This document shows, one piece after another, positions 7,399-63,420 of a stretch of DNA of 64,000 nt. The first letter of the stretch is position 1, and every line of letters begins with the position of its first letter. The stretch is from Halobacillus litoralis. GTDB taxonomy: Bacteria > Bacillota > Bacilli > Bacillales > Halobacillaceae. The position numbers and the translations under genes were made by a program. Location of the stretch: NCBI RefSeq assembly GCF_020524085.2, contig NZ_CP129016.1, positions 3,156,001-3,220,000 of the forward strand, given 5' to 3'. The notes beneath the pieces are model-generated. The model made no database searches and had not been told where the DNA came from. It worked only from the letters and a program-made list of their open reading frames with translations.

Positions 7399-7955
7399 AC
7401 TATATGGCAGGTTTCTTGAAGACTCAGTTTCGAGATGTTTCCGGGGTTCGGTGCTATGTTGGGCGTCAGGGGTGGTCGGGAAGCTACTCGCTTTCCTGCG
7501 GGGATGACGGCAAGCCTCCTCGTGCTTCGCACTGTGGGGTCTTGCCAGTCCATCCATTCCCGCGGGAGTCTCGCAGCTTCCCAACCACCCCTTTCGATGT
7601 AAGTGAGAAACGAACCCCTGCACCAAGTTGAAAGGTCTCCCACTATCCTGGTGTGATTAGTATAAAGCGCTCTATCACAAGCTTACAGTATGCTGGATAG
7701 CGTCCTTAGAAGTCCATTCCGTTCGAATGACAACGTGCAAAAGCAGCTTATTCCAGAAGTGGTTTCGAGATACTTATATGGCGAAGGGCGGAGGGGAATG
7801 GGGAGACTCCTGCGGGAAAAAAAGTGCATGGTGAGACCCCACAGGACGAAGTCCGAGGAGGCTCACCGCGCTCCCGCGGAAAGCGAGCTATTCCCCGCAG
7901 CCCCATCTACTCAACAAAAGTCTCGAAACTGAGTCTTCAAGTATAGGGAGCTTTA
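7399..7955 (-). repeat. Palindromic intergenic element, copy B (perfect 21-bp terminal repeats)
   Basis: The best preserved copy: terminal repeats 7415-7435 and 7921-7941 are exact inverse complements over 21 bp. Its outer flanks are reversed relative to copy A (ATGGCAGG on the left, AGGGAGCT on the right), yet the interior reads module 1 then module 2 in the same direction as copy A, so the interior is inverted relative to its flanks. Module 1 is full length here. Module 2 begins at GGTTTCGAGA (7761-7770) and lacks the nested hairpin of copies A and C. It lies between rpmF and the enoyl-CoA hydratase gene. Confidence 0.92.
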
Positions 7956-7975
7956 GTGGAAGAGTTTGCGGACAT

Positions 7976-8006
7976 AAAAAAAGACCTGACGGATGTCAGG
8001 CCTTTC
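7976..8006 (-). terminator. Terminator of ylbN-rpmF
   Basis: Stem CCTGAC/GTCAGG with flanking AAAG and CTTT, followed on the minus strand by seven T, 11 bp beyond the rpmF stop. Confidence 0.8.
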
Positions 8007-8016
8007 TTTGATGAAC

Positions 8017-8190
8017 TTAGTCGTTCACCACTTGTTTTCCATTATATTGTCCACAAGATTTGCAAACATGGTGTGGTTTTGAGTACTCTCCACAGTTATC
8101 ACACTGAACCATTCCTGGTGCGTGAAGTTTTTTGTGAGTACGACGTTGGTTTTTGACTTTCTTAGACGTTTTACGCTTAGGTACTGCCAT
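8017..8190 (-). CDS. rpmF: Large ribosomal subunit protein bL32
   Basis: A 57-residue ribosomal protein, start [19 protein letters not shown], with the zinc-binding pairs CDNC and CKSC, so it is the zinc-containing (C+) form. The start at 8190 is set by the conserved N-terminus and by AAAGGAGGTG at the right distance; an upstream in-frame ATG would add a 12-residue extension that bL32 does not have. It follows ylbN closely, the usual DUF177-rpmF pairing. Confidence 0.97.
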
Positions 8191-8237
8191 GTTGTACACC
8201 TCCTTTAAGGGATTTCTGAGAACCATAACATATTGTT

Positions 8238-8759
8238 TTACTCGTTCTCTTCTTCATTTAATAATGATTGCAGTTTAGCCATTCGAGGATCCACTTTCTT
8301 TTCCTCTGGTTCCTCTGTAACCACCTGCCAGCCTTTCCCTTCCTGGGGGGCTGCTTCATGAGCCTCATCATCATTGGAAAAAACGCGAGTCGGAATCTCC
8401 AACTGTACATTTTCCTTGATATAAGGCGTTAAGTCAAGCACTTCTCCATTCACGGAATGAACTTCAGAGTCATCTTCTTCTGTATGGTAAGGTGACAGAT
8501 TAAATGCCTCCAGAGCATCAATGTGAAATGGATAAGTCACATCAACTAACGTTCGGGCACAAGGCAACACCATTTCTCCATCAATCGAAAAAGTTACCGT
8601 TATATCGTTTCCTCGAGTCATTGCTTGACCTTTGACATGAACAGGGGAAATCCTGCGAATGTCATTGTTCAGTTGTGCTAATTCGCGAATATCTACGTCA
8701 TCCTCAAAGTAGAACGGCTCATCACCTGTCTGCTTGAGTTTTTGTAGAGGAAATTTCAT
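8238..8759 (-). CDS. ylbN: DUF177 / YceD family protein YlbN
   Basis: A 173-residue acidic protein starting [23 protein letters not shown]; the central segment [20 protein letters not shown] is typical of DUF177 (YceD). Relatives in plants and E. coli are linked to 23S rRNA accumulation; the precise role is unknown. It almost always precedes rpmF, as here. The ATG at 8759 has a good SD (GAGGTGATAACT); the longer reading from an upstream GTG would place the SD inside the gene. Confidence 0.9.
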
Positions 8760-8964
8760 AGTTATCACCTCATGGCAACAAGAGTTATTGTAAAAGGATT
8801 TCGCTGATTTGTCAATATTTTTTCTTTACAGCATATCCTTATTCTCGTGCGGTTTTAGTAAGATTCTCATATTTCACGGTCAGGAATGCGAAATTTCCAT
8901 AGTATCATGATAAAATAAACCAAACACTTGTTCAATAGTAAAGAATCAGATGGGAGGATCTTTT

Positions 8965-10179
8965 GTGAAATCCTGTGGAGTAGTTGTTGAATATAATCCT
9001 TTTCATAATGGACATCTTTATCATTTGGAAGAATCGAAAAAACATGCAAACGCTGATTGCATGATCGCTATCATGAGCGGTAACTTTTTACAACGTGGAG
9101 AGCCTGCCATTATTGATAAATGGTTTCGCACAAAAGCCGCCCTTCACGGTGGTGCCGACCTTGTGCTTGAGCTCCCGTTTCTGTATGCGGTCCAACACAG
9201 CGATTATTTCAGTAAAGGCGCCATTCAGACGCTTGCGGAAATCGGGGTCGATAGTATTTGTTTCGGCAGTGAGAACGGCAAAATCGCTGCATTCACAGAG
9301 GCGTTTGAACATATGAACAAACACCAGGAAGAGTATGATGTGACCGTGAGAAGATATCTGAATGAAGGATATGCCTATCCAGAGGCTTCCCGCCTTGGAT
9401 ATGAATCCATAGCTTTCCCCTCAGGTTCCATCGATCTTACTCAACCGAATAACATCCTTGGTTACAGTTACGTGAAACAACTTCTTACTTATGCTCCTGA
9501 TATCGAACCACTTACCGTCTTACGGAAAAATAATCACTACCATGATCAAGAGATCCATGGAAAGATTGCAAGTGCTACAAGTATTCGAAAAGAGTTGTTT
9601 GAAGAAGGTGTGATGACAGAAAAGGCTGGACAATCTCTTCCCCCTTCGACGATAGAGGTTTTACATCAGTACAAAAACAGCCATGGCCTCTGGCACGATT
9701 GGGAAGCTTATTTTCACCTGCTTCAATACAAGATCATGACGATGGAGGAAAGTACCCTCCGCTGTTTCCATGGGGTCGACGAAGGGTTGGAATATCGTTT
9801 AAAAAGGACAATTAAAGAAGCTACAACGTTCCATCAGTTTATTTCATCCTTAAAGACGAAGAGGTACACGTGGACAAGACTTCAGCGAACCCTTGCACAT
9901 ATCCTTGTTGGAACGGACAAGCAGGAGGCGCGCGTTCTTTTAAGAGAAACACCACCTCCTTACGCAAGGATCCTGGGCATGTCGGAAACCGGGAAAAAAT
10001 ATTTACGGACCATAAAAAAAGAAGCCTCTATCCCGCTTATCACTCAACCTCAGCAGTTGGATCATGAACTGCTAACTTTGGAAGCTAGAGCCGCTGCTGC
10101 TTATTATAGTGTCTTAACTCCTGAGCGTAGAGTGGATCAACTGAAACGAGAATACGGACCACCTGTGATCCATTCTTAA
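8965..10179 (+). CDS. ylbM: tRNA(Met) cytidine acetate ligase (TmcAL/YlbM)
   Basis: TmcAL makes N4-acetylcytidine at the wobble base of elongator tRNA-Met using acetate and ATP. The 404-residue protein starts (GTG)KSCGVVVEYNPFHNGHLYHL, with the nucleotidyltransferase HxGH signature HNGH near residue 15, and has CMIAIMSGNFLQRGEPAIIDKW near 35-55. I chose the GTG at 8965 because GGGAGGA lies 6 bp before it; the ATG at 8950 is upstream of and overlaps that SD. It is divergent from ylbN and convergent with ylbL. Confidence 0.93.
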   Translation: MKSCGVVVEYNPFHNGHLYHLEESKKHANADCMIAIMSGNFLQRGEPAIIDKWFRTKAALHGGADLVLELPFLYAVQHSDYFSKGAIQTLAEIGVDSICFGSENGKIAAFTEAFEHMNKHQEEYDVTVRRYLNEGYAYPEASRLGYESIAFPSGSIDLTQPNNILGYSYVKQLLTYAPDIEPLTVLRKNNHYHDQEIHGKIASATSIRKELFEEGVMTEKAGQSLPPSTIEVLHQYKNSHGLWHDWEAYFHLLQYKIMTMEESTLRCFHGVDEGLEYRLKRTIKEATTFHQFISSLKTKRYTWTRLQRTLAHILVGTDKQEARVLLRETPPPYARILGMSETGKKYLRTIKKEASIPLITQPQQLDHELLTLEARAAAAYYSVLTPERRVDQLKREYGPPVIHS

Positions 10180-10276
10180 CCGGGATAGCCTACATCTCCC
10201 CTGGGAGTGCTCATGATGCGGTTGCCCGGGAGCCTGTAACGAATTAAAGTTCACCGTATAGAATTTATTCAATGAT

Positions 10277-10312
10277 AAAAACAGCCGCTCCTCCTTCGGA
10301 ACGGCTGTTTTC
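10277..10312. terminator. Bidirectional terminator between ylbM and ylbL
   Basis: Stem AAAACAGCCG with CGGCTGTTTT, A-rich on the left and T-rich on the right, between the convergent stops of ylbM and ylbL. The 97 bp between the ylbM stop and the hairpin contain a GC-rich stretch (10183-10240) that I could not identify. Confidence 0.8.
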
Positions 10313-11344
10313 TTAAGCTTCCTGTTTCGGTTCTAGGTCTTGCAGGTAATCTAGTGCATCTTGGAACGTATCCACAGGAACGACTTTCATATCGGTATCG
10401 ATTTTATCCGCCGTTTCTTTAGCGACTTGATAGTTGGACCCTTCTCTTCCTTCTTCATTCGGAGCAAAGAAAATTTCGGCACCATGATCGGAAGCGGCTA
10501 CCACTTTCTTATCAATGCCTCCGATTCTGCCTACCTGTCCTTCATAATTGATTTCTCCAGTACCTGCAATTTCATATCCTTTAGTGATATCCGGTTCTGT
10601 CAATTGATCGTAAATTTCCAGTGAAAACATCAACCCGGCACTCGGTCCTCCGATTTCACCACTTTTGACATTCACTTTCGGATTTACATCCACCGTTCGG
10701 TCGGTCACAAGGGAAATGCCGACACCGACTTTGTCAGGGTTATCTGGGAAAGGAGCAAGTTCAAGTTCCCGTTCGATTGTTTCCTCATCTCTCACAATGG
10801 TGAGCATCACAGAATCCCCTTCGCCCTTGTTGCTCACATAGTCAATCAAGTCGCTCGTCTCTTGAATGTCCTGTCCATCGACCTTCACAATCTGATCGCC
10901 CGTCTCTAGAATTTCTTCCGCCGGCATGCCTTCGATTACGTTCATGACATAAACGCCTTCGTAGTTGATGTCAATCTCTTTGCCAGCTGCTTGATAGGCG
11001 ACGACTTTGGAGGCTTCTTGAGATGATTCCATCATTTGTAATTGGGCATGGAAGTACTCTTCCTCCGACACCCCTTCTGGACGGATGTCTTCTAACGGAT
11101 AGATTTGATGGAATGGACGTACCTGGGCAAGGACCCATTGGATGGGTGTCGCCTGTCCACCACGTACGGTTACAAGGTGCATGTCCCCTTCACTTTCGAA
11201 ACCACCTTCGACTTCGACTATGTCATTCAGCGCATCCGCTGTTCCCGGCTTATAAATATAATAAGGGAGGCGGAAAGCCCCCAGAAATGCCACGATAAGT
11301 ACGGTTATTATTCCGGTGATAATCAGTCTACGGTTTGTTTTCAT
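10313..11344 (-). CDS. ylbL: PDZ and Lon-type (S16) serine protease, YlbL
   Basis: A membrane-anchored protease of 343 residues: one N-terminal membrane segment (residues 8-28), a PDZ domain (about 128-190) and a Lon-like C-terminal domain with catalytic Ser in GGPSAGL (S235) and Lys in GGIDKK (K279/280). In B. subtilis YlbL degrades the cell-division inhibitor YneA after DNA damage; the same role here is inferred. Its ATG overlaps the ylbK stop by 4 bp, so the genes are coupled. Confidence 0.93.
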   Translation of the reverse strand: MKTNRRLIITGIITVLIVAFLGAFRLPYYIYKPGTADALNDIVEVEGGFESEGDMHLVTVRGGQATPIQWVLAQVRPFHQIYPLEDIRPEGVSEEEYFHAQLQMMESSQEASKVVAYQAAGKEIDINYEGVYVMNVIEGMPAEEILETGDQIVKVDGQDIQETSDLIDYVSNKGEGDSVMLTIVRDEETIERELELAPFPDNPDKVGVGISLVTDRTVDVNPKVNVKSGEIGGPSAGLMFSLEIYDQLTEPDITKGYEIAGTGEINYEGQVGRIGGIDKKVVAASDHGAEIFFAPNEEGREGSNYQVAKETADKIDTDMKVVPVDTFQDALDYLQDLEPKQEA

Positions 11345-12138
11345 TCGTTACTTGACTCCTTCCACGCAGCGAGCTTCTTTTTTATTTCTTCGATGACTTC
11401 TTCCGCTGCTTTCTCCCCCGCCTCTACAATTTCCTGGATCTTCGTAAAAGCCCGGGAGCTGAACTTCGATACATCCGGCTTGATCATCACATCTGCATCA
11501 GAGGAGACACCAATCGCTGTGACTAATTCATCCTGCATAATATCGATGCTCTGTGTGATGACATCATAGATGGAATTAATGTTTGGGTCGGAATCAAAAT
11601 GGGCACAATCCACAGCAATAATGAATGCGGCCCCCATATCTTTCACCACTGATACAGGTACACGGTCAATGACCCCTCCGTCAATATATAGACGATCTTC
11701 AATCTTTTCTGGAACGAAGATCCCGGGAATCGCAATGCTTGCCCTGACCGCTTCACTTGCAGGACCTGTCGTAAAGATTTTTTTCTCTCCGGCATAAAGA
11801 TCCGTTGCGACAATGGACATCGGCGTTTGAAAATCCTCGATGTTCTTTCCGAACGTGAAAAGCCGGATGTATTCTTTGATTCTTTTCCCTTGCACGAATC
11901 CCATTTTCGGAACGGTGAAATCCAAATAATACTTCCGTTTAAACGTAAAGGCGAGTTTATACATATCTTCGATTCTTTGTCCGGCAGCAAAAAAAGAGCC
12001 GACGAGCGCCCCCATGCTGCTTCCTGCAATGAAATCAACGGGAATATCATGTTCACGAAGGACCTTCAGAACACCCAAGTGTGCAAAACCACGTGCCCCT
12101 CCAGAACCTAAAGCCAATCCGATCTTTGGTCTCGCCAC
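11341..12138 (-). CDS. ylbK: Patatin-like phospholipase family protein YlbK
   Basis: A 265-residue patatin-fold serine hydrolase. The oxyanion loop GSGGARGFAHLG (residues 11-22), nucleophile elbow GSSMG (Ser41) and catalytic Asp in DGGVIDRVPV near 170 are present, which fits the Ser-Asp dyad of RssA/YlbK proteins. The substrate is unknown, probably a lipid ester. The start is GTG at 12138 with SD AAGGAGG. It is co-transcribed with ylbL and divergent from ylbJ. Confidence 0.9.
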   Translation of the reverse strand: MARPKIGLALGSGGARGFAHLGVLKVLREHDIPVDFIAGSSMGALVGSFFAAGQRIEDMYKLAFTFKRKYYLDFTVPKMGFVQGKRIKEYIRLFTFGKNIEDFQTPMSIVATDLYAGEKKIFTTGPASEAVRASIAIPGIFVPEKIEDRLYIDGGVIDRVPVSVVKDMGAAFIIAVDCAHFDSDPNINSIYDVITQSIDIMQDELVTAIGVSSDADVMIKPDVSKFSSRAFTKIQEIVEAGEKAAEEVIEEIKKKLAAWKESSNE

Positions 12139-12287
12139 TCGTCATTCCTCCTTCATCCATGTGGTTTATTTTATGGAATAAACCATTCCCTTATGAGCGT
12201 ACACATGGAATATAGACAACCTGTGAGCACGCGTCGAAATCTATACCCATTCTACTATTCCTATGATGAGAAGTACAGAAAACAGCC

Positions 12288-13499
12288 ATGTCTAAGGAGG
12301 CGTTCTCGATTTCCAAATTGAAAACCTTCGCATTGACGCTGCTCGCTTCGGCGCTTGCGGTTTCCTTGATTTTATATCCACGGGATGCCCTGTCCGCTAG
12401 TCTCAGGGGCCTTGATCTTTGGTGGGAAATCGTCTTCCCTTCCCTTTTACCATTTTTTATTACGGCAGAATTTTTAATCGGCTTCGGTGTTGTCCACGGG
12501 CTCGGCGCCCTTAGTGAACGGTTCATGAGACCATTGTTCAATGTCCCTGGTTGTGGCGGGTTCGTTTGGGTGATGGGGATGGCAAGCGGATATCCATCCG
12601 GAGCGAAATGGACAGCCGATCTGCGTAAGAAAGGACAAGTAACCCGTGCAGAAGCTGAGAGACTTGTCGCCTTCACCAACGCATCCAGTCCCCTTTTCAT
12701 TTTCGGGGCGATCGCTGTAGGCTTTTTCCACGATGCAAGTCTTGGAATTCTCATTGCCATAGCCCATTACGGCGGGAATTTCCTAGTGGGCATTGGTATG
12801 CGCTTTTATAAGAGGAAGGATCAGGAACGAAGCATGGACCGCGTTTCTGCTTCATGGAAGGATGCTTTCGGTAAAATGCACCAATCCAGGCTCGAGGATG
12901 GCCGGACGCTGGGGAAATTGATGGGTGATGCGGTAACACGATCAGTGGACACGCTTCTTATGGTCGGGGGTTTCATTATGCTTTTCTCCGTTCTCACAGA
13001 ATTGTTGAAGCAAACGGGAGCCATTCATATTTTTTCGCATTTGCTTTTTTATACTGGACTGCCGGAAACCTTTCATGTTCCCTTTACTGCAGGTATGTTG
13101 GAACTTACGACCGGCATCGGTGCGATTACAGAAACGCATGAACCTTTGCTCGCTCAGCTTTTGATCGTAAGCTTCATTCTCGGTTTTCACGGGTTTTCGA
13201 TTCAAGCGCAAATCGCAAGCATCCTCGCCGAAACGGATATTGGATTCAAACCGTATGCACTTGCAAGAATCGCTCATGGATTTATTGCCGCAGGCCTGAT
13301 TTATGTGTTGTATTTCATTTACCGTCCTTTTCAACAACAAAGCATGCCGATCTGGAACCCGAACGAAAACTTCACAACCCCCATTCTTGAATTTTTCAAT
13401 CATTATGGACCTCCGATCACATTGCTCATGATTATGCTCATGATCGGGGTGAAATGGAACAGTGAGCGGAAAACAAAAAAACGATCCCTACGCACATAG
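12288..13499 (+). CDS. ylbJ: Sporulation integral membrane protein YlbJ
   Basis: A polytopic membrane protein of about 400 residues with nucleoside-recognition (Gate-type) segments such as WWEIVFPSLLPFFITAEFLIGFG and GMASGYPSGAKWTADLRK. B. subtilis ylbJ is a sigma-E gene needed for normal spore formation. The annotated ATG at 12288 is doubtful: the only strong SD, TAAGGAGG (12293-12300), lies inside the reading frame, and the codon at the right distance is ATT at 12309, with TTG at 12318 as the alternative. The true protein therefore probably starts near ISKLKTFALTLL. Confidence 0.88.
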   Translation: MSKEAFSISKLKTFALTLLASALAVSLILYPRDALSASLRGLDLWWEIVFPSLLPFFITAEFLIGFGVVHGLGALSERFMRPLFNVPGCGGFVWVMGMASGYPSGAKWTADLRKKGQVTRAEAERLVAFTNASSPLFIFGAIAVGFFHDASLGILIAIAHYGGNFLVGIGMRFYKRKDQERSMDRVSASWKDAFGKMHQSRLEDGRTLGKLMGDAVTRSVDTLLMVGGFIMLFSVLTELLKQTGAIHIFSHLLFYTGLPETFHVPFTAGMLELTTGIGAITETHEPLLAQLLIVSFILGFHGFSIQAQIASILAETDIGFKPYALARIAHGFIAAGLIYVLYFIYRPFQQQSMPIWNPNENFTTPILEFFNHYGPPITLLMIMLMIGVKWNSERKTKKRSLRT

Positions 13500-13517
13500 T
13501 CCGTAGAGATCGTTTTT
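13475..13517. terminator. Bidirectional terminator between ylbJ and coaD
   Basis: Imperfect stem AAACGATCcCTACG with CGTAgaGATCGTTT flanked by A and T runs; the ylbJ stop lies in its loop and the coaD stop follows 11 bp later. Confidence 0.75.
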
Positions 13518-13527
13518 GTTATCGTTT

Positions 13528-14016
<489 letters not shown>

Positions 14017-14565: not shown

Positions 14566-14883
14566 CCTGTACACCTCACTTGTCAGCATTCCCCATAATC
14601 CTACCACAAAATAGACGTCGCAGGGAAGTATAGGGTGCGTGTCAGGCCTTCCTCTCGGAACCGGATTGTCTAAAGCGGAAGTGCCCTGCAAGTCTGAAAC
14701 ATCATAAATCTTGCACATTTTTTTAAAACCAGTGAATAATCAGGTTCAGCAACGTACATACTAGCACTTGAAGCGGATGATACTGCTTCTGAAAACGGAG
14801 AAGGCTTACATCCCCATAAGCTCTTCCTCCGGTTTCTCCTCTCCCTTTACTTTTTTGTTTCATCTCTGATGAATCAGAAAAGC
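14566..14883. other. Intergenic stretch upstream of rsmD
   Basis: About 320 bp between rsmD and the convergent-side terminator of the next gene. Open frames here are short and lack SD sites and family motifs. I see no RNA structure, repeat or promoter that I can support, although the rsmD-coaD promoter must lie here. Confidence 0.5.
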
Positions 14884-14917
14884 AGGGTCGCCCGTGATGG
14901 GCGACCCTATTTTTTTG
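14884..14917. terminator. Terminator downstream of the 449-residue membrane-anchored protein gene
   Basis: Perfect 10-bp stem AGGGTCGCCC with GGGCGACCCT, 5-nt loop, then seven T on the plus strand; it lies 4 bp beyond the stop of the minus-strand gene and probably works in both directions. Confidence 0.75.
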
Positions 14918-14920
14918 CCA

Positions 14921-16267: not shown

Positions 16268-16370
16268 CCTGCTCCCCTCCTTTTCCAATTTACATGCACA
16301 AAGTTTCGTGCTACCTTTAATTTGATTGTTTAATAGACTGCTCTGTTACATCTCAATGTTTATTGAAGAT

Positions 16371-17001
16371 AAGCTCCCGATTGTAGAAGACTCAGTTTCG
16401 AGATGTTTCCGGGGTTGGTTTGCCATAATGAGACTCAGGGGTGGCTGGGAAACTACTCGCTTTCCTGTGGGGGAGCGCCGAGCTTCCTCGGACTGAGTCC
16501 TGCGGGATCTCGCCTATCTCCTTCTCCCACGGGAGTCTCGCAGCTTCCCAACCACCCCATCTCTTGTAAGGGGAAACGAACCCCTGTACCGAAAAGGAGA
16601 GGCTCCCGTTCTTCCCTCCTAAGCAGGCATAAAGCGCTCTGTATCAAGCATCTATGTTCTAAATGCCCACTGGGGATAGTTAATATAATCCACTTCCCAC
16701 AATCATATAAACTGATTTTTCCAGTAGTGGTTTCGAGAATCTTACTTGGGAAAGGGGCGGAGGGGAATGGGGAGACTCCTGCGGGAAAAGAGTGCTTGGT
16801 GAGACCCCGCAAAGCGTCAGCCTGAGGAGGCTCAAAAGAATATAGGAAGTTCGATTAAGTTCGGCACGTCCTGTGCCAACATCGAACGACCCCACTTCCT
16901 GTGGGGCCCCGCGGAAAGCGAGCTATTCGCCGCAGCCCCCCATCCACTCAATAAAAGCCTCGAAACTGAGTCTTACACAATCCTGCCATATACTTTATTT
17001 A
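16371..17001 (+). repeat. Palindromic intergenic element, copy C
   Basis: Terminal repeats are 16385-16403 and about 16958-16975; flanks AAGCTCCC (left) and ACAATCCTGCCATATA (right). Flanks and interior have the same relative orientation as copy A (module 1 then module 2). Module 1 arms GGGAAACTA/AGCTTCCC enclose a partly diverged core; the spacer holds the conserved CATAAAGCGCTCTGTATCAA. Module 2 carries the same nested ~70-bp hairpin as copy A (about 16830-16905), with AAGTTCGGCACGTCCTGTG. It lies between two divergent genes and so may separate or carry their promoters. Confidence 0.9.
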
Positions 17002-31316: not shown

Positions 31317-31352
31317 TAAAATCTCAGAGCCCATGCCTCTGAGATTTTTTTA
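31317..31352 (+). terminator. Terminator of ctaA
   Basis: Stem AAAATCTCAGAG with CTCTGAGATTTT followed by a T tract. Confidence 0.9.
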
Positions 31353-31355
31353 TAT

Positions 31356-31740
31356 AAGCTCCCAATAGTGGAAGACTCAGTTTCTAGATGTTTGTTGAGT
31401 GGATGGGGCTGCGGTCACTTGCCGAAAGAGATTCTCGAAACTACTTTCCAGTTAAAAGAGCTTTTATGACTAAGAATCCTATATCGATGCAGATTAAGCT
31501 TGAATTCACAACACAACCAGGCAGTAATTATAAGAGGGATTTCGAAAACCTCACTTGGTAAAGGGGCGGAAGGAAAAGGTGAGACTCCTGTGGGAAGTGC
31601 GTGGTAGATGAGACCCCGCAGAGCGTTAGCTCGAGGAGGCTCATCACTCGCCCACGGAAAGCGAACTTTTTCCTGGAGCCCCTTTCTTCCAACAAAAGCC
31701 TCGAAATCGAGTCTTCAACAATCCTGCCATATTGTTTAAC
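31356..31740 (+). repeat. Palindromic intergenic element, copy D (mosaic, degenerate)
   Basis: Flanks are as in copy A (AAGCTCCC left, ACAATCCTGCCATATT right), with a left terminal repeat at 31371-31388 (one change) and a right one at about 31699-31716. After the left repeat it has the beginning and end of an inverted module 2 (TTGTTGAGTGGATGGGGCTGCGG, then ATTCTCGAAACTACTTT) with the middle deleted, then a diverged spacer, then a forward module 2. So it carries two oppositely oriented module 2 sequences and no module 1. It lies between convergent ctaA and pycA. Confidence 0.82.
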
Positions 31741-31745
31741 AAATC

Positions 31746-38678: not shown

Positions 38679-38695
38679 ATCCTCAAATGAAACAT

Positions 38696-38920
38696 AAGCT
38701 CCTATTTCTGAATGCTCAGTTTCAATACTTTTGTTGAGTGGATTGGAGGCTGCGAGACTCCCGTGGGAGAAAGGAGATCGGCGACAGCTGGAGGAAGCTC
38801 GCCACTCCCCCACAGGAAAGCGAGTGGCTTCCCCCACACCACTGACTCTCAGCACATCAAACGAACTACGGAACATTTCGAAACAAAGTCTTCAAGAATC
38901 CTGTCATATTCTTTAATAAC
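38696..38920 (+). repeat. Palindromic intergenic element, copy E (single module)
   Basis: The shortest copy, 225 bp. Flanks are AAGCTCC (left) and AATCCTGTCATATT (right). Degenerate terminal repeats (GAATGCTCAGTTTC, TTCGAAACAAAGTCTTC) enclose a single inverted module 1 with GCTGCGAGACTCCCGTGGGA and CACAGGAAAGCGAG. It shows that one module between the terminal repeats can exist alone. It lies between convergent ylaI and ylaH. Confidence 0.82.
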
Positions 38921-40540: not shown

Positions 40541-40628
40541 AACATCGTACCCCTTTTATAAGTATCAATCTTTATCGTACCAAATCCAACCAAACATTGC
40601 ATCAAATCCGCCCCCCCTTGTCCAACCA

Positions 40629-41190
40629 TAGCTCCTTTTACTTGAAGACTCAGTTTCGAGATGTTTGTTAGAGTTTAGGGGCTCCGGGAAAAGGTTCGCT
40701 TTCCATGGGGCGGGCGGTGAGCCTCCTCAGGCTACGCCTTCCGGGGTCTCACCTGTCCCACTCGTCCCATAGGAGTCTCACCGTTTCCCTCCACCCCTTT
40801 ACCATGTAAGTGTCTCGAAACCACTTCCGGATAAAGATGCTTTTACGCACTAGGAAAGTCGAGGAGTATCAGCTTCCGTGGCCGCTATTCTGAATGCAAA
40901 AGCTTAATATAGAGGGCTTTATTCTTATAACACCAGGCTAGTGGAAGACACCCTTACACGGTAAAGGGGTTCGTTTCTTACCTACATCGAGAGGGGTAGT
41001 TGGGAAGCTGCGAGACTCCCGCGGAAATGGATTGGCTGGCGAGACCCCGCAGTGCGAAGCACGAGGAGGCTTGCCGTCATCCCCGCAGGAAAGCGAGCTG
41101 CTTCCCAGCCCCCCCTAATACTCAACATGGCGAAAGACCCCCTAAACATCTCGATACTGAGTCTTTCACAAACCTGCCGCATACTTGAAT
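40629..41190 (+). repeat. Palindromic intergenic element, copy F (inverted interior)
   Basis: Terminal repeats 40641-40661 and about 41149-41168 (right arm diverged: TCGATACTGAGTC). Flanks are AGCTCC (left) and CACAAACCTGCCGCATA (right), the same orientation as copy A, but the interior reads inverted module 2 then inverted module 1. Module 1 keeps GGGAAGC/GCTTCCC pairing (about 41002 and 41099). It lies upstream of suhB and downstream of ykzI. Confidence 0.9.
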
Positions 41191-41218
41191 AAGCCGTTTA
41201 AATTTCGAAGGCAATAAA

Positions 41219-45157: not shown

Positions 45158-45284
45158 TTTCTATTCTTGCGTGCGTTTCTCTCTTCTCGCGGAAACAAAA
45201 AAGAGCCAGGTCTTAGACCTGGCTCTTCCTCTTTTTATGCTTCCTTCACAGAAAGGATGCCCCCGTTTAATAGTACATACTCTT

Positions 45285-45398
45285 TATTTATCTTCTGGTT
45301 TGTTGCAAGTAGGACAGGTGCTGTAAAGAGTAGAAACCTTCTCATTTTCGTAGTGCTCAATTACCTTCTGACAGTCTTGACATACGATAGTACCCATT
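45285..45398 (-). CDS. sr1P: SR1P-like GapA-binding peptide
   Basis: A 37-residue peptide MGTIVCQDCQKVIEHYENEK followed by VSTLYSTCPTCNKPEDK. It closely matches the SR1P peptide as I recall it (MGTIVCQDCNEAIHYFEDEK...), which binds the glycolytic GapA and promotes its interaction with RNase J1. Two cysteine pairs (CQDC, CPTC) could bind zinc. The SD GGGGAGTGG precedes the ATG by 6 bp. rnjA, encoding RNase J1, is also in this window. Confidence 0.9.
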
Positions 45399-45418
45399 CA
45401 CATCCACTCCCCATATTT

Positions 45419-45432
45419 GTAATCGTTTTCAA
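45419..45432 (-). promoter_or_regulatory. CcpA cre site in the sr1 leader
   Basis: TGAAAACGATTACA on the minus strand matches the cre consensus TGWAANCGNTNWCA at every position. It lies about 4-17 nt after the predicted transcription start and 20 bp before the sr1P ATG, a position suited to CcpA roadblock or repression, and would make the RNA respond to glycolytic sugar. Confidence 0.8.
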
Positions 45433-45442
45433 CGTAATTTCA

Positions 45443-45471
45443 TTCTAATATGGCACAATCGAAAAATCAAG
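45443..45471 (-). promoter_or_regulatory. Predicted sigma-A promoter of sr1
   Basis: TTGATT (45466-45471), 17-bp spacer, TAGAAT (45443-45448) on the minus strand, directly upstream of the cre site. Confidence 0.65.
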
Positions 45472-55497: not shown

Positions 55498-55500
55498 CTG

Positions 55501-56968: not shown

Positions 56969-56973
56969 AAAAC

Positions 56974-57010: not shown

Positions 57011-57044
57011 ACTTTCTCCGTAGAGCTTCCGTTTATTGAAAAAA

Positions 57045-57821
57045 TTACTTCAACAAGCCTATTTCATAAATCGCATGAGAGAGGCCGTCTTCACCCACAT
57101 CTTTTGTTACAAAATCACTGACGGCTTTCGTTTCAGATACTGCATTCCCCATCGCGATTCCTGTTCCTACCTCACGGATCATTTCGATATCGTTCAAACC
57201 GTCGCCAAAAGCGTAAGTATCCTCCATCCTTAGACCAGCTGCTTCAATCATCTTCTTGATTCCTTCCGCTTTCGATCCACCTTTTGGAAGAACATCACAG
57301 GAAACGGGGTGCCAACGGATGTAATCGAAAGATTCGTAGGCGTCTCTGTACTCTTCGATTTCATCCCCTTCACAAAACAGGAGGGACTGATAAATATTTC
57401 TTCCTTTAAAAAAGGCGGCGTCCGCACTAGGGTGATCAATATAAAGCGTTCCAAGACTTTCTTCTATATGATCGTGATCTGGTACAGAAGCTTTCATTTC
57501 TTCATGGTTCATGAAGACCATTGGATGGTCGTTCTGCTCTGCGTGTTTATGAAGTCGTTCTAACTCGGGTTCAGATAATGGATTCGTGTAAATTTCTTTT
57601 CCTTCAAAAACGACATATTGTCCGTTGAAACTTACAAAGGAATCGATTCCAAGTTCCTCTCTCAACTTCTTGTACATGAAAGGAGCACGACCGGTTGCAA
57701 TGGCACAGTACACTCCTTCATCTTGTAGTGCTTGAATCGCTGCCTTCGTTTTCTCTGGCAGTTTTTTTTCATGATTCAGTAGTGTTCCGTCAATATCAAA
57801 AAAAGCAATTTTTTTCGTCAT
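57045..57821 (-). CDS. Cof-type HAD family phosphatase
   Basis: A 258-residue HAD-superfamily IIB hydrolase. Motif I FFDIDGTLL (Asp9, Asp11), motif II ATGRAPF, motif III KGGSKAEGIKKM (Lys) and motif IV FGDGLNDIEMI are all present. It likely dephosphorylates a sugar phosphate or flavin precursor; the substrate is unknown. B. subtilis ykrA is in the same place. The start at 57821 has SD GAGGAGG; the upstream extension to 57932 is not conserved. Confidence 0.92.
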   Translation of the reverse strand: MTKKIAFFDIDGTLLNHEKKLPEKTKAAIQALQDEGVYCAIATGRAPFMYKKLREELGIDSFVSFNGQYVVFEGKEIYTNPLSEPELERLHKHAEQNDHPMVFMNHEEMKASVPDHDHIEESLGTLYIDHPSADAAFFKGRNIYQSLLFCEGDEIEEYRDAYESFDYIRWHPVSCDVLPKGGSKAEGIKKMIEAAGLRMEDTYAFGDGLNDIEMIREVGTGIAMGNAVSETKAVSDFVTKDVGEDGLSHAIYEIGLLK

Positions 57822-58054
57822 TTCCTTGTCCTCCTCGTCGGCCTGCGTACAATTTCTCTTATGTATCATAGCATACCCCACTCTTTGGCTATACTGTAGC
57901 ATGAGTGGATAGGTTTGAGAAGAAAAACACACGATATATACAAAATCTAATATGTAAATGTTTCATTCTTCCACAAACCGTATTATACTAGAGATAACAG
58001 GGATTGGGCGGTTTAACGTTTTTTTGTTTTCTTCTTCAGGATGAAAGGGGATAG

Positions 58055-58132
58055 ATGCCAATGATGAAGCGTCTACGAAGGAAGCTTAGAAAACGTTGGA
58101 AAAATTTCATGAAACGAAAAACATACGCGTAA
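58055..58132 (+). CDS. Candidate 25-residue, highly basic peptide
   Basis: A short frame with a proper SD (AAAGGGG, 4 bp before ATG 58055): MPMMKRLRRKLRKRWKNFMK followed by RKTYA. About half the residues are Arg or Lys. I do not recognise it. It lies in the leader region before rpoY-rnjA, followed by a GGGGTG/CACCC hairpin, so it could be a small RNA-binding or membrane-active peptide or a leader peptide. Coding is not proven. Confidence 0.4.
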   Translation: MPMMKRLRRKLRKRWKNFMKRKTYA

Positions 58133-58259
58133 ACCATTGTTTTAGGGGTGTACCGAGCACCCGCACATACCATTATCATTCCCATACAGGAAACAAACGT
58201 GCTATGATGATGACAGGACAAGAATGTGGAAATTATATCTAGTTAGGAGCGATAGAGTA

Positions 58260-58469
58260 ATGATATTTAAAGTACTTTATCAGGAACTTGCGAGCGAAGT
58301 TCCTGTCCGTGAACGTACAGACAGCATGTACGTGGAAGCGGAAACAGAAAGACAAGTTCGTGAAAAATTAAAAAATGAAGGATTCAATATCGAATATATT
58401 CAGGTGCTTGATGAGGATCACCTTGAATATGAGAAGCAATCCGAAGATTTTAAAGTGGAGAATTTTTAA
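58260..58469 (+). CDS. rpoY: RNA polymerase epsilon subunit RpoY
   Basis: RpoY (YkzG) is the small accessory epsilon subunit of Bacillota RNA polymerase. The 69-residue protein [20 protein letters not shown], with [28 protein letters not shown], is full length. The ATG at 58260 follows TTAGGAG; a longer frame from 58224 is not conserved. It precedes rnjA by 3 bp, the standard pairing. An extended -10-like TGCTATGAT lies at 58200-58208, without a clear -35. Confidence 0.96.
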
Positions 58470-58472
58470 CCG

Positions 58473-60143
58473 ATGAAATTCGTGAAAAATGACCAGACAG
58501 CCGTATTCGCCCTTGGCGGACTCGGTGAAATTGGTAAAAACACGTACGGAGTACAATTCCAAGACGAAATCATCCTCATTGACGCTGGTATCAAATTCCC
58601 GGAAGACGAGCTGCTCGGTATCGACTATGTTATTCCGGATTATACGTACCTCGTCCAAAATCAAGATAAAATCAAAGGGCTATTCATTACGCACGGTCAC
58701 GAAGATCACATTGGTGGAATTCCGTACTTGCTGCGTGAAATTAATATTCCGATTTATGCGGGCAAACTGGCGCTCGGCCTTATCCGCAATAAGTTGGATG
58801 AACACGGCCTACTGCGGAATGCGAAACTGAATCCGATCCAGGAAGACGATGTCATCAAATTCCGTAAAACATCCGTTTCCTTCTTCCGTACGACGCACAG
58901 TATTCCTGACTCTTACGGAGTTGTAGTTAAAACTCCACCAGTAAACGTCGTACACACAGGGGACTTCAAATTCGACTTCACCCCTGTTGGAGAACCGGCT
59001 GACCTTGCCAAGATGGCCGAAATCGGTAAAGAAGGCGTGCTAGCCCTATTGTCCGATAGTACCAATGCAGAAGTTCCTGGTTTTACAAAATCAGAACGTG
59101 TGGTTGGACAGAGCATTGACGACATCTTCACGCGTATGGATGATGGTCGATTAATCTTTGCAACCTTTGCATCCAACATCCACCGTCTACAACAAGTGGT
59201 AGAATCTGCAGTAAAAAATGGCCGTAAAGTGGCTGTCTTCGGACGAAGTATGGAATCTTCCATCCGAATCGGTCAGGAACTTGGATATATCCGTGCCCCT
59301 AAGGATACATTCATTGATGCCCAGCAGATCAACCGACTTCCAGCAAATGAAGTCGTGATCCTTTGTACAGGCTCACAAGGTGAACCAATGGCTGCCCTGT
59401 CACGTATCGCCAACGGAACTCACCGTCAAATTCAAATTCAACCAGGCGACACCGTCGTGTTCTCTTCTTCCCCAATCCCTGCAAACACGATCAGTGTCAG
59501 CCGTACCATCAATAAACTCTACCGCGCCGGTGCCGATGTCATCCACGGCCCATTGAATGACATCCACACATCCGGTCACGGTAGTCAGGAAGAAATGAAG
59601 CTCATGCTTCGTTTGATCCAACCGAAATTCTTTATGCCGATTCACGGGGAATACCGTATGCTGAAGGAGCACACGAAGCTCAGCCATGATTGTGGCGTCG
59701 AGCCTGAGAACTGCTTCGTTATGGATAATGGTGACGTTCTTGCTCTTGGTAAAGAGGAAGCTACTGTCGCAGGTAAAATCCCTTCCGGATCTGTCTATGT
59801 CGACGGAAGCGGAATTGGTGACATCGGTAACATCGTCCTTCGTGATCGTAGAATTCTTTCTGAAGAAGGTCTTGTCATCGTAGTCGTTAGCATCAACATG
59901 AAAGAATTCAAGATCGCATCAGGTCCTGATATCATCTCCCGTGGATTCGTCTACATGAGAGAATCAGAAGACTTGATTAAAGAAGCACAGAATCTCGTCA
60001 GCTCCCATGTTGAAAAAGTGATGGAGCGTCGTACGACTCAATGGTCTGAAATCAAAAATGAAATTACAGATACCATTGCACCGTTCTTGTTTGAAAAGAC
60101 AAAACGTCGTCCGATGATTCTTCCAATCATTATGGAAGTGTGA
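58473..60143 (+). CDS. rnjA: Ribonuclease J1
   Basis: RNase J1 is the 5-prime exonuclease/endonuclease of the RNA degradosome. The 556-residue protein has the metallo-beta-lactamase motif HGHEDH (His74, His76, Asp78, His79), GDFKFDFTP, the beta-CASP segment with [12 protein letters not shown] and [13 protein letters not shown], and the C-terminal domain. It is coupled to rpoY. In B. subtilis, GapA with SR1P interacts with RNase J1; both SR1P and RNase J1 genes occur here. Confidence 0.98.
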
Positions 60144-60147
60144 TCAT

Positions 60148-60189
60148 AAAAAATCCCCGCTGGGAACTCCAGCGGGGATTTCTTTTTTT
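60148..60189. terminator. Bidirectional terminator between rnjA and the pyruvate oxidase gene
   Basis: Stem AAATCCCCGCTGG with CCAGCGGGGATTT, 4-5 nt loop, then T-rich. Confidence 0.9.
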
Positions 60190-61910
60190 ATGTCAGGCGT
60201 TTCAATGCTTTTTTCATGTCTGGTAAGTCGAGGTTTCCTGACTCGAAGAATTCTTTAACGATATACTTGGAAAAATTCACAGCTGATTGATAGTCAATTT
60301 TTCCAGGAAGTGGCGCCTGGTCTTCAATGACGACATCGATCAATACAGGTTTCTCGGAAACAAAGGCCTGCTTCATCTTTGTAGAGAGCTCCTCATACGA
60401 CTCAATTCGATAACCTTCTCCCCCACAAGCTTCTGCAAATTTAGCGAAGTCCACTTCCCCCTAAGTTCGTGGCATAATTCAAATGCCCCATCTGTTCTTG
60501 TTCGTACTTAATCATTCCAATCTTACTATTGTTCAGCACAATCATTTTAATTGGCAATTCATATTTGACGGCGGTCACAAAATCATGCATCACCATGGAG
60601 AATCCACCGTCTCCGGAAACTCCAATCACTTGTTTATCCGGATATGCTTTTTTCGCTGCAATCGCGCCAGTAAGACCACTTCCCATGGTTGCAAGCCATC
60701 CAGACAAAACGAACTTCTGGTTCACAAGGTGTAAAAAGCGGGAAAGCCATACGGTCACGTTCCCTACATCTCCGGATATAATGGCTCCTGGTTCCATATG
60801 CTTCTCAAGTTCATACATCACTTGTGGTGCATGTAATGGGTTCTCCGTAGATCGTTTCTCTTCTTGTAGAGCGATTCTCCAATCATTCATTTTTTCCTGA
60901 TAATACTCAAGGTACTCTCGCTTTTCGACAGGAGCAGTAAGCTTCTTCAAAGCGGCGAGGGTCTCTTTACTATCCCCAGCCAATCCGACTTCAATAGGAT
61001 AATACTTCCCAAGGTTCTCAGGTTTATTGTCAATTTGAATGGCTGTGACATCTTCAGGAAGGAAATCACGGTAAGGAAACTGTGTACCTACTAGAATCAA
61101 TAGATCCGTCTCCTTCATCGCATGGTAAGCAGGCTTCGTTCCGATTTGACCATGCTGCCCTAGGCAATACGGGTGGTTATCCGGAATTACTCCCTTAGCA
61201 AGCAGACTTAAAATGATCGGGGCTTTAATGGACTCTGCAAAATCGATCAATTCATTCGGGGCATTTCTCGTTCCCTGTCCTGCCAGAATGATCGGTTTTT
61301 CTGCTTTTTCAATCAGCTGTCTCGCTTCATTCAATTGATTCTGTGCAGGGAAAATTTCTGGACGATAATAGTCTCCAGATGTGAGGCGGACCTCATCTGT
61401 CTGTTTGGCTGCAAATAGATCATCCGGGACGATCAAGACAGAAACACCCTTATGGGCGTAAGCTTCTTTGATTGCCTGATCGAGTAAATCCGGAAGCTGA
61501 GCTTCTGTCTCCGCCCGACGATTGAAGACAGCAACATCATCGAACATTCTTTCCAAGTTGATTTCATGGAACGCTCCCGTCCCCACTTCTTCACTATGCA
61601 CTTGTCCGACAATCGCGAGCACTGGCGCGCTGTCTGCTTTTGCATCATAAAGCCCATTAAGTAAGTGGACAGCTCCTGGTCCAGCAATCGCTGCTGTGAC
61701 ACCAATCTTCCCTGTCAATTTCGCATAGGCCGCCGCTGATAAAGCACCAGTCTCCTCATGGCGGACTTGGACGAATTCAATTTCTTCCTGCCTTTTTCTT
61801 AAGTCATCAATCAATTCATTGATGGAGTCGCCCGGCATTCCATATATGTGATCGACACCCCAATTGATGAGTTGTTGTGTCATGACTTCTCCTGTTCGCT
61901 TATTGAACAT
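60188..61910 (-). pseudogene. Pyruvate oxidase-type thiamine-diphosphate enzyme, frameshifted
   Basis: A YdaP-like TPP enzyme (pyruvate oxidase/acetolactate synthase superfamily): N-terminal PYR domain (LINWGVDHIYGMPGDSINELID, VRHEETGALSAAAYAKLTGKIG), middle domain, and PP domain with GDGGFSMVMHDFVTAVKYELPIKMIVLNNSKIGMIKYEQ. The first frame ends NYATNLGGSGLR; the second resumes VDFAKFAEACGGEGYRIES. Removing one of five G/C at 60457-60461 gives NLGEVDFAKFAEA and a continuous protein of about 573 residues, the family size. The SD GAAAGG suits ATG 61910. FAD-dependent pyruvate oxidation is inferred. Confidence 0.87.
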
Positions 61911-62037
61911 CCAAATCATCCTTTCAAGCTCCTTAAATTATCTCCTATAACCCTTCTTATTTCCTTTTCCTGCTTTTCTTAAACAAACATATCAATGTTC
62001 ATGATGCGGAAAGACCATTCTTTTATTGTAGAAAATA

Positions 62038-62077
62038 TAAAATACCCTCTGGCCTTCTACTGACCAGAGGGTATTTC
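62038..62077 (-). terminator. Terminator of ktrC
   Basis: Stem AAATACCCTCTGG with CCAGAGGGTATTT, 11-nt loop, just beyond the ktrC stop; A and T runs on both sides. Confidence 0.88.
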
Positions 62078-62086
62078 TTGTTCTTT

Positions 62087-62752
62087 TTAATCTTCTAATA
62101 CGAGGTTCTTTTCGAAACGACTAATATCCTTATCTGCTCCAATAACAATAAGCACGTCACTCTCTTTGATTTCTTCCGTGGCCATCGGGGATACAATCAC
62201 ATCTTTCCCTCGTTTAATAGCAACAACGTTACATCCATACTCGGCACGGATATCAAGGTCTACAAGCGTTTGTCCGCCCATTTTGCTTCCAGCTTTCACT
62301 TCGACGACACTATGGTCATCAGAAAGCTCGATATAATCTAGAATATTGTTGGATATGATGTTGTGAGCGATTCGTTTCCCCATGTCACGTTCGGGGTGAA
62401 CGACTTGATCGGCTCCTATTTTATTGAGGATTTTCTCATGGTAATCATTTTGGGCTTTGACCGTAATCATTTTGATGCCCATTTCCTTCAATATTAATGT
62501 CGTCAGCATGCTGGCCTGGATATTATCCCCGATGGCTACGATGACGTGGTCGATGTTGCGGAACCCGAGCTCTTTCAGCACATTTTCATCTGTAGAATCG
62601 GCAATAACAGCGTGTGACGCGATATCACGGTATTCATTTACTTTATCTTCATCAAGGTCGAGGGCAAGAACTTCCATTCCCTCTCGGCTCAACTCACGGC
62701 AGATGCTGCCTCCGAATCGGCCTAAACCAATGACAGCGAATTCTTTTTTCAT
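62087..62752 (-). CDS. ktrC: Potassium uptake regulatory subunit KtrC
   Basis: A 221-residue cytoplasmic gating subunit of a Ktr potassium channel: RCK-N domain with VIGLGRFGGSICREL (GxGxxG, residues 9-16) and acidic ALDLDEDKV, which bind ATP/ADP or NAD, then RCK-C (about 135-221), which can bind c-di-AMP. No membrane partner (KtrD/KtrB) is next to it. It lies beside rnjA as ykqB/ktrC does in B. subtilis, which favours KtrC over KtrA. Confidence 0.92.
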   Translation of the reverse strand: MKKEFAVIGLGRFGGSICRELSREGMEVLALDLDEDKVNEYRDIASHAVIADSTDENVLKELGFRNIDHVIVAIGDNIQASMLTTLILKEMGIKMITVKAQNDYHEKILNKIGADQVVHPERDMGKRIAHNIISNNILDYIELSDDHSVVEVKAGSKMGGQTLVDLDIRAEYGCNVVAIKRGKDVIVSPMATEEIKESDVLIVIGADKDISRFEKNLVLED

Positions 62753-62857
62753 ACGTCAACCCCCAACTGTCTCGCAAAATCTATGCTTATTCTATCACAT
62801 AAATCCCCACCTCAACATATAGATTCACCATATTCATCAAAGAAAAGATCTTCAACT

Positions 62858-63420
62858 AAAGCTCCCTTTTCTTGAAGACTCAGTTTCGAGACTTCGTTGA
62901 GTGGATGGGGCTGCGGGGAATAACTCGCTTTCCGCGGGAGCGCGGTGAGCCTCCTCGGACTGCGTCCTGTGGGGTCTCACCATGCACTTTTTTCCCGCAG
63001 GAGTCTCGCCATTCCCCTCCGCCCCTTTGCTATATCAGTGTCTCGAAACCACTTCATGAATAATCAGCTATTCTATTTGATGAGAGTATAAGGAGAATAC
63101 TCCCAAGCCGAGGTACTTGAACCCTGAAAGCCTGATACAGAGCGTTTTATGCCTACAACAACCGCGATAGTGGAAGACCATCCAACTTTGGTAAAGGGGT
63201 TCGTTTACCCCCTCTTGGAATGGGGTGGTTGGGAAGCTGCGAGACTCCCGTGGGAGAAAGGAGATAGGCGAGATCCCGCAGGGCGTTAGCCAGAGGAAGC
63301 TCGCCACTCCCCCACAGGAAAGCGAGTAGCTACCCGACCACCCCTGACGCCCAACATAGCAACGAACCCCGGAAAAATCTCGAAACTGAGTCTTCCACAA
63401 TCCTGCCATATTCTTTAATA
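62858..63420 (+). repeat. Palindromic intergenic element, copy G (inverted interior)
   Basis: Terminal repeats 62871-62891 and 63378-63396 are perfect over 18 bp. Flanks match copy A (AAGCTCCC left, ACAATCCTGCCATATT right) but the interior is the inverse of copy A: inverted module 2, spacer, inverted module 1 (GGTTGGGAAGCT with AGCTACCCGACC). Both modules are full length. It lies between ktrC and cydB. Two open frames across it have no protein-like features. Confidence 0.92.

What the first reader, a model, noticed from the sequence alone, without database searches (positions are those of the whole stretch)
7399..63420. Interior of the repeat is inverted relative to its own flanks in some copies
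The outer flanks are asymmetric, so orientation can be read independently of the interior. Copies A and C have AAGCTCCC-side, module 1, module 2, CCTGCC-side. Copies F and G have the same flanks but module 2 then module 1, inverted. Copy B has reversed flanks and an A-oriented interior, so it belongs with F and G. The interior between the 18-21 bp terminal repeats has therefore flipped. This could come from homologous recombination between the terminal repeats or from a site-specific invertase, and if active would be a genome-wide set of switches.
Basis: seen in the sequence. Interest (0 to 1): 0.74.

Follow-up and report, generated by a model that had tools for sequence, protein, structure and literature searches.

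The report
Repeats whose interiors are swapped
In the salt-loving bacterium Halobacillus, about a hundred non-coding repeats sit at fixed chromosomal sites but seem to have had their middles replaced again and again by middles from other sites, sometimes the other way round, so the apparent 'flips' are mostly swaps and not an on/off switch.

Summary
The window (genus Halobacillus) holds seven copies of a ~570-bp non-coding element: asymmetric outer flanks (C, ..GCTCCC; G, ..GGCAGG), an inverted 18-bp terminal repeat (TIR) and two hairpin modules. In 1.26 Mb of this genome, 95 TIR pairs include orders C21G 50 and C12G 26.

Sites and flank orientation are conserved between species; interiors are not. 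At 12 syntenic sites another species' interior finds the orthologous interior as best match among this genome's 95 sampled copies in 2 of 39 cases. At least seven of the 12 sites carry both orientations in different species. The most similar interiors lie in very different flanks.

Orientation is largely inherited with the interior: 51 of 54 nearest neighbours agree, and no discordant full-length pair is under 12.6% divergent; the tree needs 8 switches (3 firmly). Single modules are, however, shared across orientation classes. The change from flank-linked to module-linked sequence lies mainly inside the TIR.

Most likely, ectopic recombination (gene conversion) pours interiors into standing flanks, and the inverted TIRs occasionally reverse them. 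Rival: site-specific cassette exchange. An active switch is not supported, though strains could not be compared. Similar end sites bracket genes elsewhere (GNAT; Gabija).

The parts
3345..3919 (+). Copy A, C-flank to G-flank, interior order 1-2 (C12G); module 2 contains Bacillaceae-1 RNA 3759-3825
7392..7963 (-). Copy B; flanks reversed on + strand, class C21G; interior 95% like sampled copies at two other loci of the genome, 80% like its orthologue in G002
16361..17001 (+). Copy C, class C12G; Bacillaceae-1 RNA at 16839-16905
31346..31742 (+). Copy D, chimeric interior with module 2 ends on both sides (C22G), 346 bp TIR to TIR
38685..38919 (+). Copy E, deletion derivative (184 bp TIR to TIR), C21G
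40619..41192 (+). Copy F, C21G-type (right module diverged, unclassified by the script)
62849..63421 (+). Copy G, class C21G
7418..7435 (+). TIR of copy B at the G flank (GAAGACTCAGTTTCGAGA); partner at 7921-7938 (-). Across 179 ends the main change from flank-linked to module-linked columns lies between TIR positions 10 and 19
57011..57032 (.). Short remnant or empty site with a single core-like motif where G002 and G011 carry an element and G007 a decayed one

Best explanation
A family of ~570-bp non-coding mobile-element-like repeats whose sites and asymmetric flanks are old and fixed, while the interior (from inside the TIRs inward) is repeatedly overwritten by interiors, or single modules, of other copies through ectopic homologous recombination, i.e. 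gene conversion. The conserved flank + TIR stretches (about 43 bp a side) are the anchors. Flank-to-flank pairing keeps the interior's orientation. Occasional pairing of a TIR with the opposite, inverted TIR reverses it. Shown: fixed sites and flanks, non-orthologous interiors, largely inherited orientation, change point mainly inside the TIR, young interiors in old sites. Inferred: that the agent is general recombination and not a dedicated enzyme, and that reversal is a by-product without function.
For: Other-species interior best matches the orthologous one among this genome's sampled copies in 2 of 33 and 0 of 6. Flank orientation at these sites is the same wherever classified; I turned minus-strand loci by hand. 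Youngest interior pairs (<3% divergence; 4 pairs from five copies): C-side outer flank 48% and linker 46% mismatched, as in the most diverged 1222 pairs (46%, 41%); G-side 21% and 17% against 34% and 21%. Six sites carrying interiors only about 1-6% diverged from copies elsewhere (B, L009_7909, L014_6888, L022_6554, L045_5401, L068_16217) are each occupied in at least two other species. Columns at TIR positions 1, 8, 9, 10 follow the flank, position 14 and most columns from 19 on the module. Partial tracts: of 457 segments of >=94% identity and >=100 bp between copies, most end inside the interior on at least one side, and 148 join copies of different order in opposite sense; a 129-bp 100% patch in G008's copy E matches the L009 lineage. 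Orientation concordance 51 of 54, 8 tree changes.
Against: At the site of one of the youngest interiors (L009_7909), other species hold interiors only 77-89% alike over 150-220 nt; replacing such residents is what general recombination with mismatch repair should resist (the actual resident is unknown). In the youngest cluster the similarity ends near both TIRs, which also fits a dedicated enzyme. In the 3-7% class (17 pairs) C-side flanks are somewhat more alike than background (outer 35% against 46%, linker 26% against 41%), so flanks may at times travel along. Inner columns 21, 24 and 27 keep a flank signal. The empty-site scan is not a clean negative: 10 hits without a TIR against 3 in the control. 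One interior is 98.95% identical between two species (G000, G008) at one site although 4-fold sites are 70% identical, which needs DNA exchange between species as well.
Confidence: 0.55

Rival explanations
1. Dedicated cassette exchange: an unknown transposase or site-specific recombinase moves interiors between standing end sites, integron- or RMCE-like. The non-coding interior is then only one kind of cargo; genes are others.
For: Change point mainly within the TIR; flanks of the youngest interiors differ. Ends can be read as half of a 56-bp hairpin 'H' (TIR - about 20 nt with core CCTGCC - TIR) that stands alone in Halobacillus, on a Salimicrobium plasmid and in another genus of the family. 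Similar end sites (C-sites with 2-5 mismatches to the TIR) follow genes in three arrays, C-sites all in one orientation, 23-62 nt after the stop codon in 6 of 7 cases and 225 nt in one: L052 (unknown ORF, GNAT), L214 (P-loop, DinB-like), and L223, where GajA/GajB lie between a G-site and a C-site. A single-core remnant in two species at one site.
Against: No enzyme identified, and no systematic search for one beyond Y1_Tnp. Only a weak sign of empty sites (10 against 3 in a control whose best score, 24.0, beats all). Linkers do not follow interiors in the youngest pairs. Partial tracts and module mosaics. The gene arrays were not shown to be mobile.
Confidence: 0.28
2. In-place inversion of the interior by recombination between the inverted TIRs, an active genome-wide set of switches.
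For: Inverted 18-bp repeats; orientation change point mainly inside the TIR; both orientations at at least 7 of 12 orthologous sites; modules shared between opposite-orientation copies at 94% identity or more.
Against: None of the opposite-orientation orthologues has the orthologous interior as best match. Closest opposite-orientation pair among 54 full-length sampled copies is 12.6% diverged; 51 of 54 nearest neighbours concordant. Promoter-like sites not above chance in the two copies scanned, B and C. Gene contexts close to background with a crude ORF caller. Some true inversions (at least 3 on the tree) probably did occur.
Confidence: 0.08
3. Independent insertion of different elements into the same target sites in each species, with flanks belonging to the target.
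For: Flanks conserved per site and, for the youngest interiors, not shared; one site with a single-core remnant in two species.
Against: Flank consensus is shared by unrelated sites. In the outgroup sequences that could be read at such places (parts) the motif is missing. Same place and orientation in up to six species.
Confidence: 0.06

Closest known systems
REP / BIME repeats (mosaic extragenic elements)
   Same: Many intergenic palindromic units, mosaic arrangement. Evolution of REPs by gene conversion was raised as a question by Higgins 1988 (seen only as a title in the reference list of PMC3733652).
   Different: Much longer (570 bp); fixed asymmetric C/G ends; interior swapped at standing sites; no linked RAYT found.
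Bacterial MITEs (bcr1, NEMIS, RUP; named in passages of PMC3733652)
   Same: Terminal inverted repeats, no coding capacity, high copy number, intergenic.
   Different: No target duplication seen for the long form; in the six sites tested recent spread was by interior replacement at old sites, not by new insertion.
Bacillaceae-1 RNA (RF01690)
   Same: Module 2 contains it above the gathering score in copies A and C.
   Different: It covers only 67 nt of one module; the passages of PMC2864571 that I saw name it in a table only and do not describe the composite element.
Invertons (phase-variable invertible DNA; general knowledge)
   Same: Segment between inverted repeats found in both orientations.
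   Different: Not the same segment in two orientations at one site in the comparisons made; no promoter signal in two copies; orientation largely heritable.
Integron cassette arrays / CALIN
   Same: Constant end sites, exchangeable cargo, and gene arrays with a site after most genes (L052, L214, L223).
   Different: Integrase and attC criteria not tested; cargo orientation relative to sites is not fixed; integrons are reported as extremely rare in Firmicutes (PMC9024848 passages).

Membership tests
Inverton / DNA inversion switch | Segment flanked by inverted repeats | tested here: met
Inverton / DNA inversion switch | Same segment in both orientations at one locus | tested here: not met
   between species only: opposite-orientation orthologues carry non-orthologous interiors; within-strain data not available
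Inverton / DNA inversion switch | Promoter or regulatory read-out inside segment | tested here: inconclusive
   1 promoter-like site per region against 0.7 expected, copies B and C only
Inverton / DNA inversion switch | Linked invertase | not tested
   no systematic search for recombinases was made
REPIN / RAYT | RAYT gene flanked by the same repeat | tested here: not met
   20 Y1_Tnp loci: no TIR end within 2.5 kb in 18; one C-end 1.9 kb away (3 mismatches) and one unclassified 4-mismatch hit in the other two; several show other repeats beside the gene, judged by eye
MITE | Terminal inverted repeats without a transposase gene | tested here: met
   of ORFs of 120 aa or more only one (140 aa, in copy C) lies inside an element of the window
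MITE | Target-site duplication | tested here: inconclusive
   long form: none seen; stand-alone H: TA on both sides in 6 of 9 (a tenth, L226, with 5 mismatches in one arm, left out)
Bacillaceae-1 RNA (RF01690) | Covariance-model match above gathering score | tested here: met
   copies A and C, 60.5 and 69.6 bits against cut-off 35; the other five window copies do not reach it
Integron / CALIN | IntI integrase | not tested
Integron / CALIN | attC sites by covariance model | not tested
   no attC model was run
Integron / CALIN | Array of different genes each followed by a like-oriented site | tested here: inconclusive
   three arrays read (L052, L214, L223), C-sites with 2-5 mismatches; mobility not tested

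The most novel reading that the evidence does not exclude
Halobacillus and related genera have a dispersed cassette-exchange system: hundreds of standing docking sites (C and G half-sites derived from a 56-bp palindromic, often TA-flanked hairpin) between which cargo is exchanged by a still unknown enzyme. Most cargo is a non-coding two-hairpin RNA-like cassette that can dock in either orientation, but some is genes, including a GNAT acetyltransferase and a Gabija anti-phage operon in ordered arrays: an integron-like system in Firmicutes.
Probability: 0.2. Interest if true: 0.85.

Novelty: new variant of a known kind. Interest (0 to 1): 0.58.

Why it matters
Dispersed bacterial repeats are usually thought to spread by inserting at new sites. 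In the sites tested here, recent spread is visible as replacement of interiors inside old sites, nearly erasing orthology of the interiors between species with 90% coding identity. That makes a natural, genome-wide record of ectopic recombination (tract ends, orientation, barriers) that can be read from sequence. It also warns that orientation differences at orthologous repeats need not mean a switch. If the gene-bearing arrays use the same sites, a cargo-exchange system in Firmicutes is within reach of a test.

Tried and rejected
RAYT/REP origin: a Y1_Tnp gene of ~190-200 aa seemed, by eye, to track copy number across the genus, but 18 of 20 such loci have no TIR end within 2.5 kb and several show other repeats beside the gene; set aside as agent. 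Hairpin coupling of outer arm and linker: no covariation (286 of 500 and 393 of 500 shuffles reach the observed score). Excision and re-insertion through empty sites: the scan gave 32 hits, 22 of them ordinary C ends; the other 10 stand against 3 in reversed sequence, whose best score (24.0) exceeds all, so the test is weak and not decisive. Spread on phages, viruses or plasmids: no exact TIR in viral contigs, no phage match, only module-like pieces and one H on plasmids. Autonomous parent with a transposase between TA-flanked TIRs: one 1.1-kb candidate in the loci held, which proved to be a UPF0489 gene. Gene direction: elements 28 --, 27 ++, 14 divergent, 14 convergent of 83 placed; background 186, 206, 163, 119. 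The first flank script failed through a range error and was corrected. Ends seen singly (44 of 234) were left out of the orientation counts; orthologous sites with only one recognisable TIR were left out of the 39. Paper searches for a prior description; no title or abstract start listed describes this element, and the library holds open-licence papers only.
Full report
WHAT IS THERE. The window lies at G000:C1:3156001-3220000 of a 3.95-Mb genome. Its HIGH_NTase1 protein (the name tmcAL is recalled) is 92-95% identical to that of five Halobacillus genomes, so the genus is Halobacillus. Seven dispersed repeats lie between genes. Each is bounded by GAAGACTCAGTTTCGAGA (TIR) facing inward; 13 matches with up to 3 mismatches against 0.12 expected. 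Outside the TIR are two different ends: C, consensus about TTCCACTAAA-GCTCCC-7 nt, and G, consensus about TTATTnAAnnATAT-GGCAGG-6 nt. The linker is 7 nt in 85 of 89 C ends and 6 nt in 87 of 87 G ends whose core could be placed. Similarity between copies stops about 25 bp outside the TIR. Inside are module 1 and module 2, both G+C-rich hairpin sequences separated by a variable middle. Module 2 contains Bacillaceae-1 RNA (RF01690) above the gathering score in two of the seven copies. In an alignment of 58 interiors, 16 of 43 predicted pairs have at least one two-sided change, most of them in module 2; part of this is the difference between subfamilies, and no tree-aware control was made.

In the window plus 60 stretches chosen around listed hits (1.26 Mb, so not a random sample) there are 234 TIR ends and 95 facing pairs. 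Where both flanks are classified, 89 of 90 pairs are C..G. Interior order read from C to G is 2-1 in 50, 1-2 in 26, 2-2 in 7, 1-1 in 2, and unclear in 10. Window copies A and C are 1-2; B, F and G are 2-1 (F with a diverged module 1, unclassified by the script); D is 2-2; E is a 184-bp remnant of type 2-1.

WHERE THE ORIENTATION CHANGES. For 179 ends, each column was tested for association with side (C or G) and with the adjoining module (1 or 2). Most columns outside the TIR and TIR positions 1, 8, 9 and 10 follow the side (0 of 200 stratified shuffles as high at these four positions). Position 14 (1 of 200) and most columns from 19 on follow the module. The border is not perfectly sharp: columns -11, -7 and -3 carry a weak module signal, and inner columns 21, 24 and 27 a side signal. 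So interiors have mainly been turned relative to flanks by exchange inside the inner half of the TIR, while the outer TIR and the linker stay with the side.

ORIENTATION IS LARGELY INHERITED WITH THE INTERIOR. Among 54 full-length sampled copies of this genome the nearest neighbour has the same orientation class in 51. The closest discordant pair is 12.6% diverged. On a maximum-likelihood tree of 69 interiors (own genome and relatives) the label needs 8 changes (bootstrap 7-9), at least 3 of them forced by well-supported branches, against a shuffled mean of 20.2 (0 of 500 as low). Against a simple reading: the interiors are mosaic, so one tree is an approximation. At the scale of single modules exchange crosses the classes: of 457 segments of at least 94% identity and 100 bp, 148 join copies of different order in opposite sense, for example 94.9% over 254 bp between L037_5012 (1-2) and L068_18812 (2-1).

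SITES ARE OLD, INTERIORS ARE NOT. Syntenic regions were read in H. aidingensis (G002), Halobacillus sp. Nhm2S1 (G008), H. faecis (G013), two H. litoralis genomes (G007, G011) and more distant species; the names follow from matching contig lengths. Coding identity to these five is 0.88-0.90, and 4-fold sites are 0.64-0.70 identical. Sites A-G and five further sites are occupied at the same place, with the same flank orientation wherever classified, in several of these species. Their interiors are mostly not orthologous. Asked which of this genome's 95 sampled copies matches best, the other-species interior picks the orthologous one in 2 of 33 and 0 of 6; when both are full length, 1 of 18 and 0 of 4 (my count). 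Orientation differs between species at A, B, C, F, G, L009_7909 and L014_6888 (7 of 12 sites; D may be an eighth, with one flank unclassified), each time with an interior whose best match lies elsewhere.

INTERIORS MOVE LARGELY WITHOUT FLANKS. Copies with interiors under 3% diverged (4 pairs from five copies) have C-side linkers 46% and outer flanks 48% mismatched, like the most diverged 1222 pairs (41% and 46%). On the G side they are 17% and 21% against 21% and 34%. In the next class (3-7%, 17 pairs) the C side is moderately more alike than background (26% and 35%), so flanks may sometimes come along. Six sites whose interiors are about 1-6% diverged from copies elsewhere were checked, and all six are occupied in at least two other species. 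One interior (L009_7909) is 98.95% identical between this genome and G008 at the same site, while G002, G007, G011 and G016 hold other interiors there. In one search G008 has only that one full-length copy above 87% among those scored (29 of 113 candidates), so material has probably also passed between species. Interiors are in general more alike across species (best matches mostly 77-90%) than 4-fold sites, so constraint also acts on them. A 129-bp patch in G008's copy E is 100% identical to this lineage, a partial tract.

MECHANISM. The simplest account is ectopic gene conversion between copies, anchored on the conserved ends. Pairing in the parallel sense keeps orientation; pairing through the inverted TIRs turns it. 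Partial tracts give the chimeric 2-2 copies and module mosaics. Against it stand the low identity of interiors held at the same sites by other species and the ending of similarity near the TIRs in the youngest cluster, which leave room for a dedicated exchange enzyme. I found no candidate, but tested only Y1_Tnp genes. TIR numbers (up to 2 mismatches) vary from 0 to 355 per genome among the 22 genomes of the genus, so a recombinase that tracks this number could be found by comparing complete genomes.

A WIDER PATTERN. A 56-bp hairpin, TIR - about 20 nt with core CCTGCC - TIR, with the TIRs pointing outward, stands alone in this genome (L052, L061), in G002 (L225), on Salimicrobium plasmid pSJ52 (L179) and in G023, another genus of the family. 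Six of nine such hairpins have TA on both sides. Element ends look like halves of it, and in G023 the G end is in several copies a complete hairpin. In three places C-sites follow genes in one orientation: L052 (unknown ORF; GNAT), L214 (P-loop protein; DinB-like) and L223. In L223 GajA (821 bits to the PADLOC model) and a GajB split in two ORFs lie between a G-site and a C-site. The C-sites have 2-5 mismatches to the TIR; 6 of 7 lie 23-62 nt after a stop codon and one 225 nt. This resembles cassette arrays. It was not tested for mobility, integrase or attC structure, and I keep it as a lead.

LIMITS. One genome per species, so strain-level switching is untested. The orientation census is a sample enriched for good TIRs. 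Small-number results (4 youngest pairs) should be repeated on whole genomes. Papers: passages only of PMC2864571, PMC3733652, PMC9024848 and PMC8049555; all others as listings.

Noticed in passing
L223 (G023, another genus of the family) 1371-4844: Gabija genes gajA and gajB (gajB split into two ORFs) between a G-type and a C-type end site of this repeat family, next to other genes followed by C-sites.
   Followed up: partly
L052 7688-8902 (own genome, ~2.54 Mb): Array: 56-bp hairpin, 150-aa ORF without Pfam match, C-site, GNAT acetyltransferase, C-site; both C-sites (4 mismatches each) in one orientation.
   Followed up: partly
L214 1338-3834 (G023): Hairpin followed by a P-loop kinase-like gene, C-site, a 102-aa ORF and a DinB-like gene, C-site.
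   Followed up: partly
L179 4002-4057: Stand-alone copy of the 56-bp hairpin on Salimicrobium jeotgali plasmid pSJ52.
   Followed up: partly
L159 9932-10264 (own genome C1:1466932-1467264): Single RAYT-like Y1 transposase gene with another repeat beside it (..ATGACCTGGTACACC..), seen by eye also in several relatives; a second RAYT in G002 and G011 sits among GGTGCCAGGCACT repeats.
   Followed up: partly
window 45252-45444 (-): Match to SR1 antisense sRNA (RF02376), 47 bits against cut-off 45.
   Followed up: no
window 14793-14916 (-): ylbH leader (RF00516), 78.8 bits.
   Followed up: no
G011, many places: At least 20 listed places share an 88-92% match to only the first ~214 nt of the L009 interior: looks like a species-specific expansion of one module.
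   Followed up: no
G008 copy at locus A: C flank is followed by a G flank in the same direction and then TIR and module 1: a rearranged copy with one flank turned.
   Followed up: no
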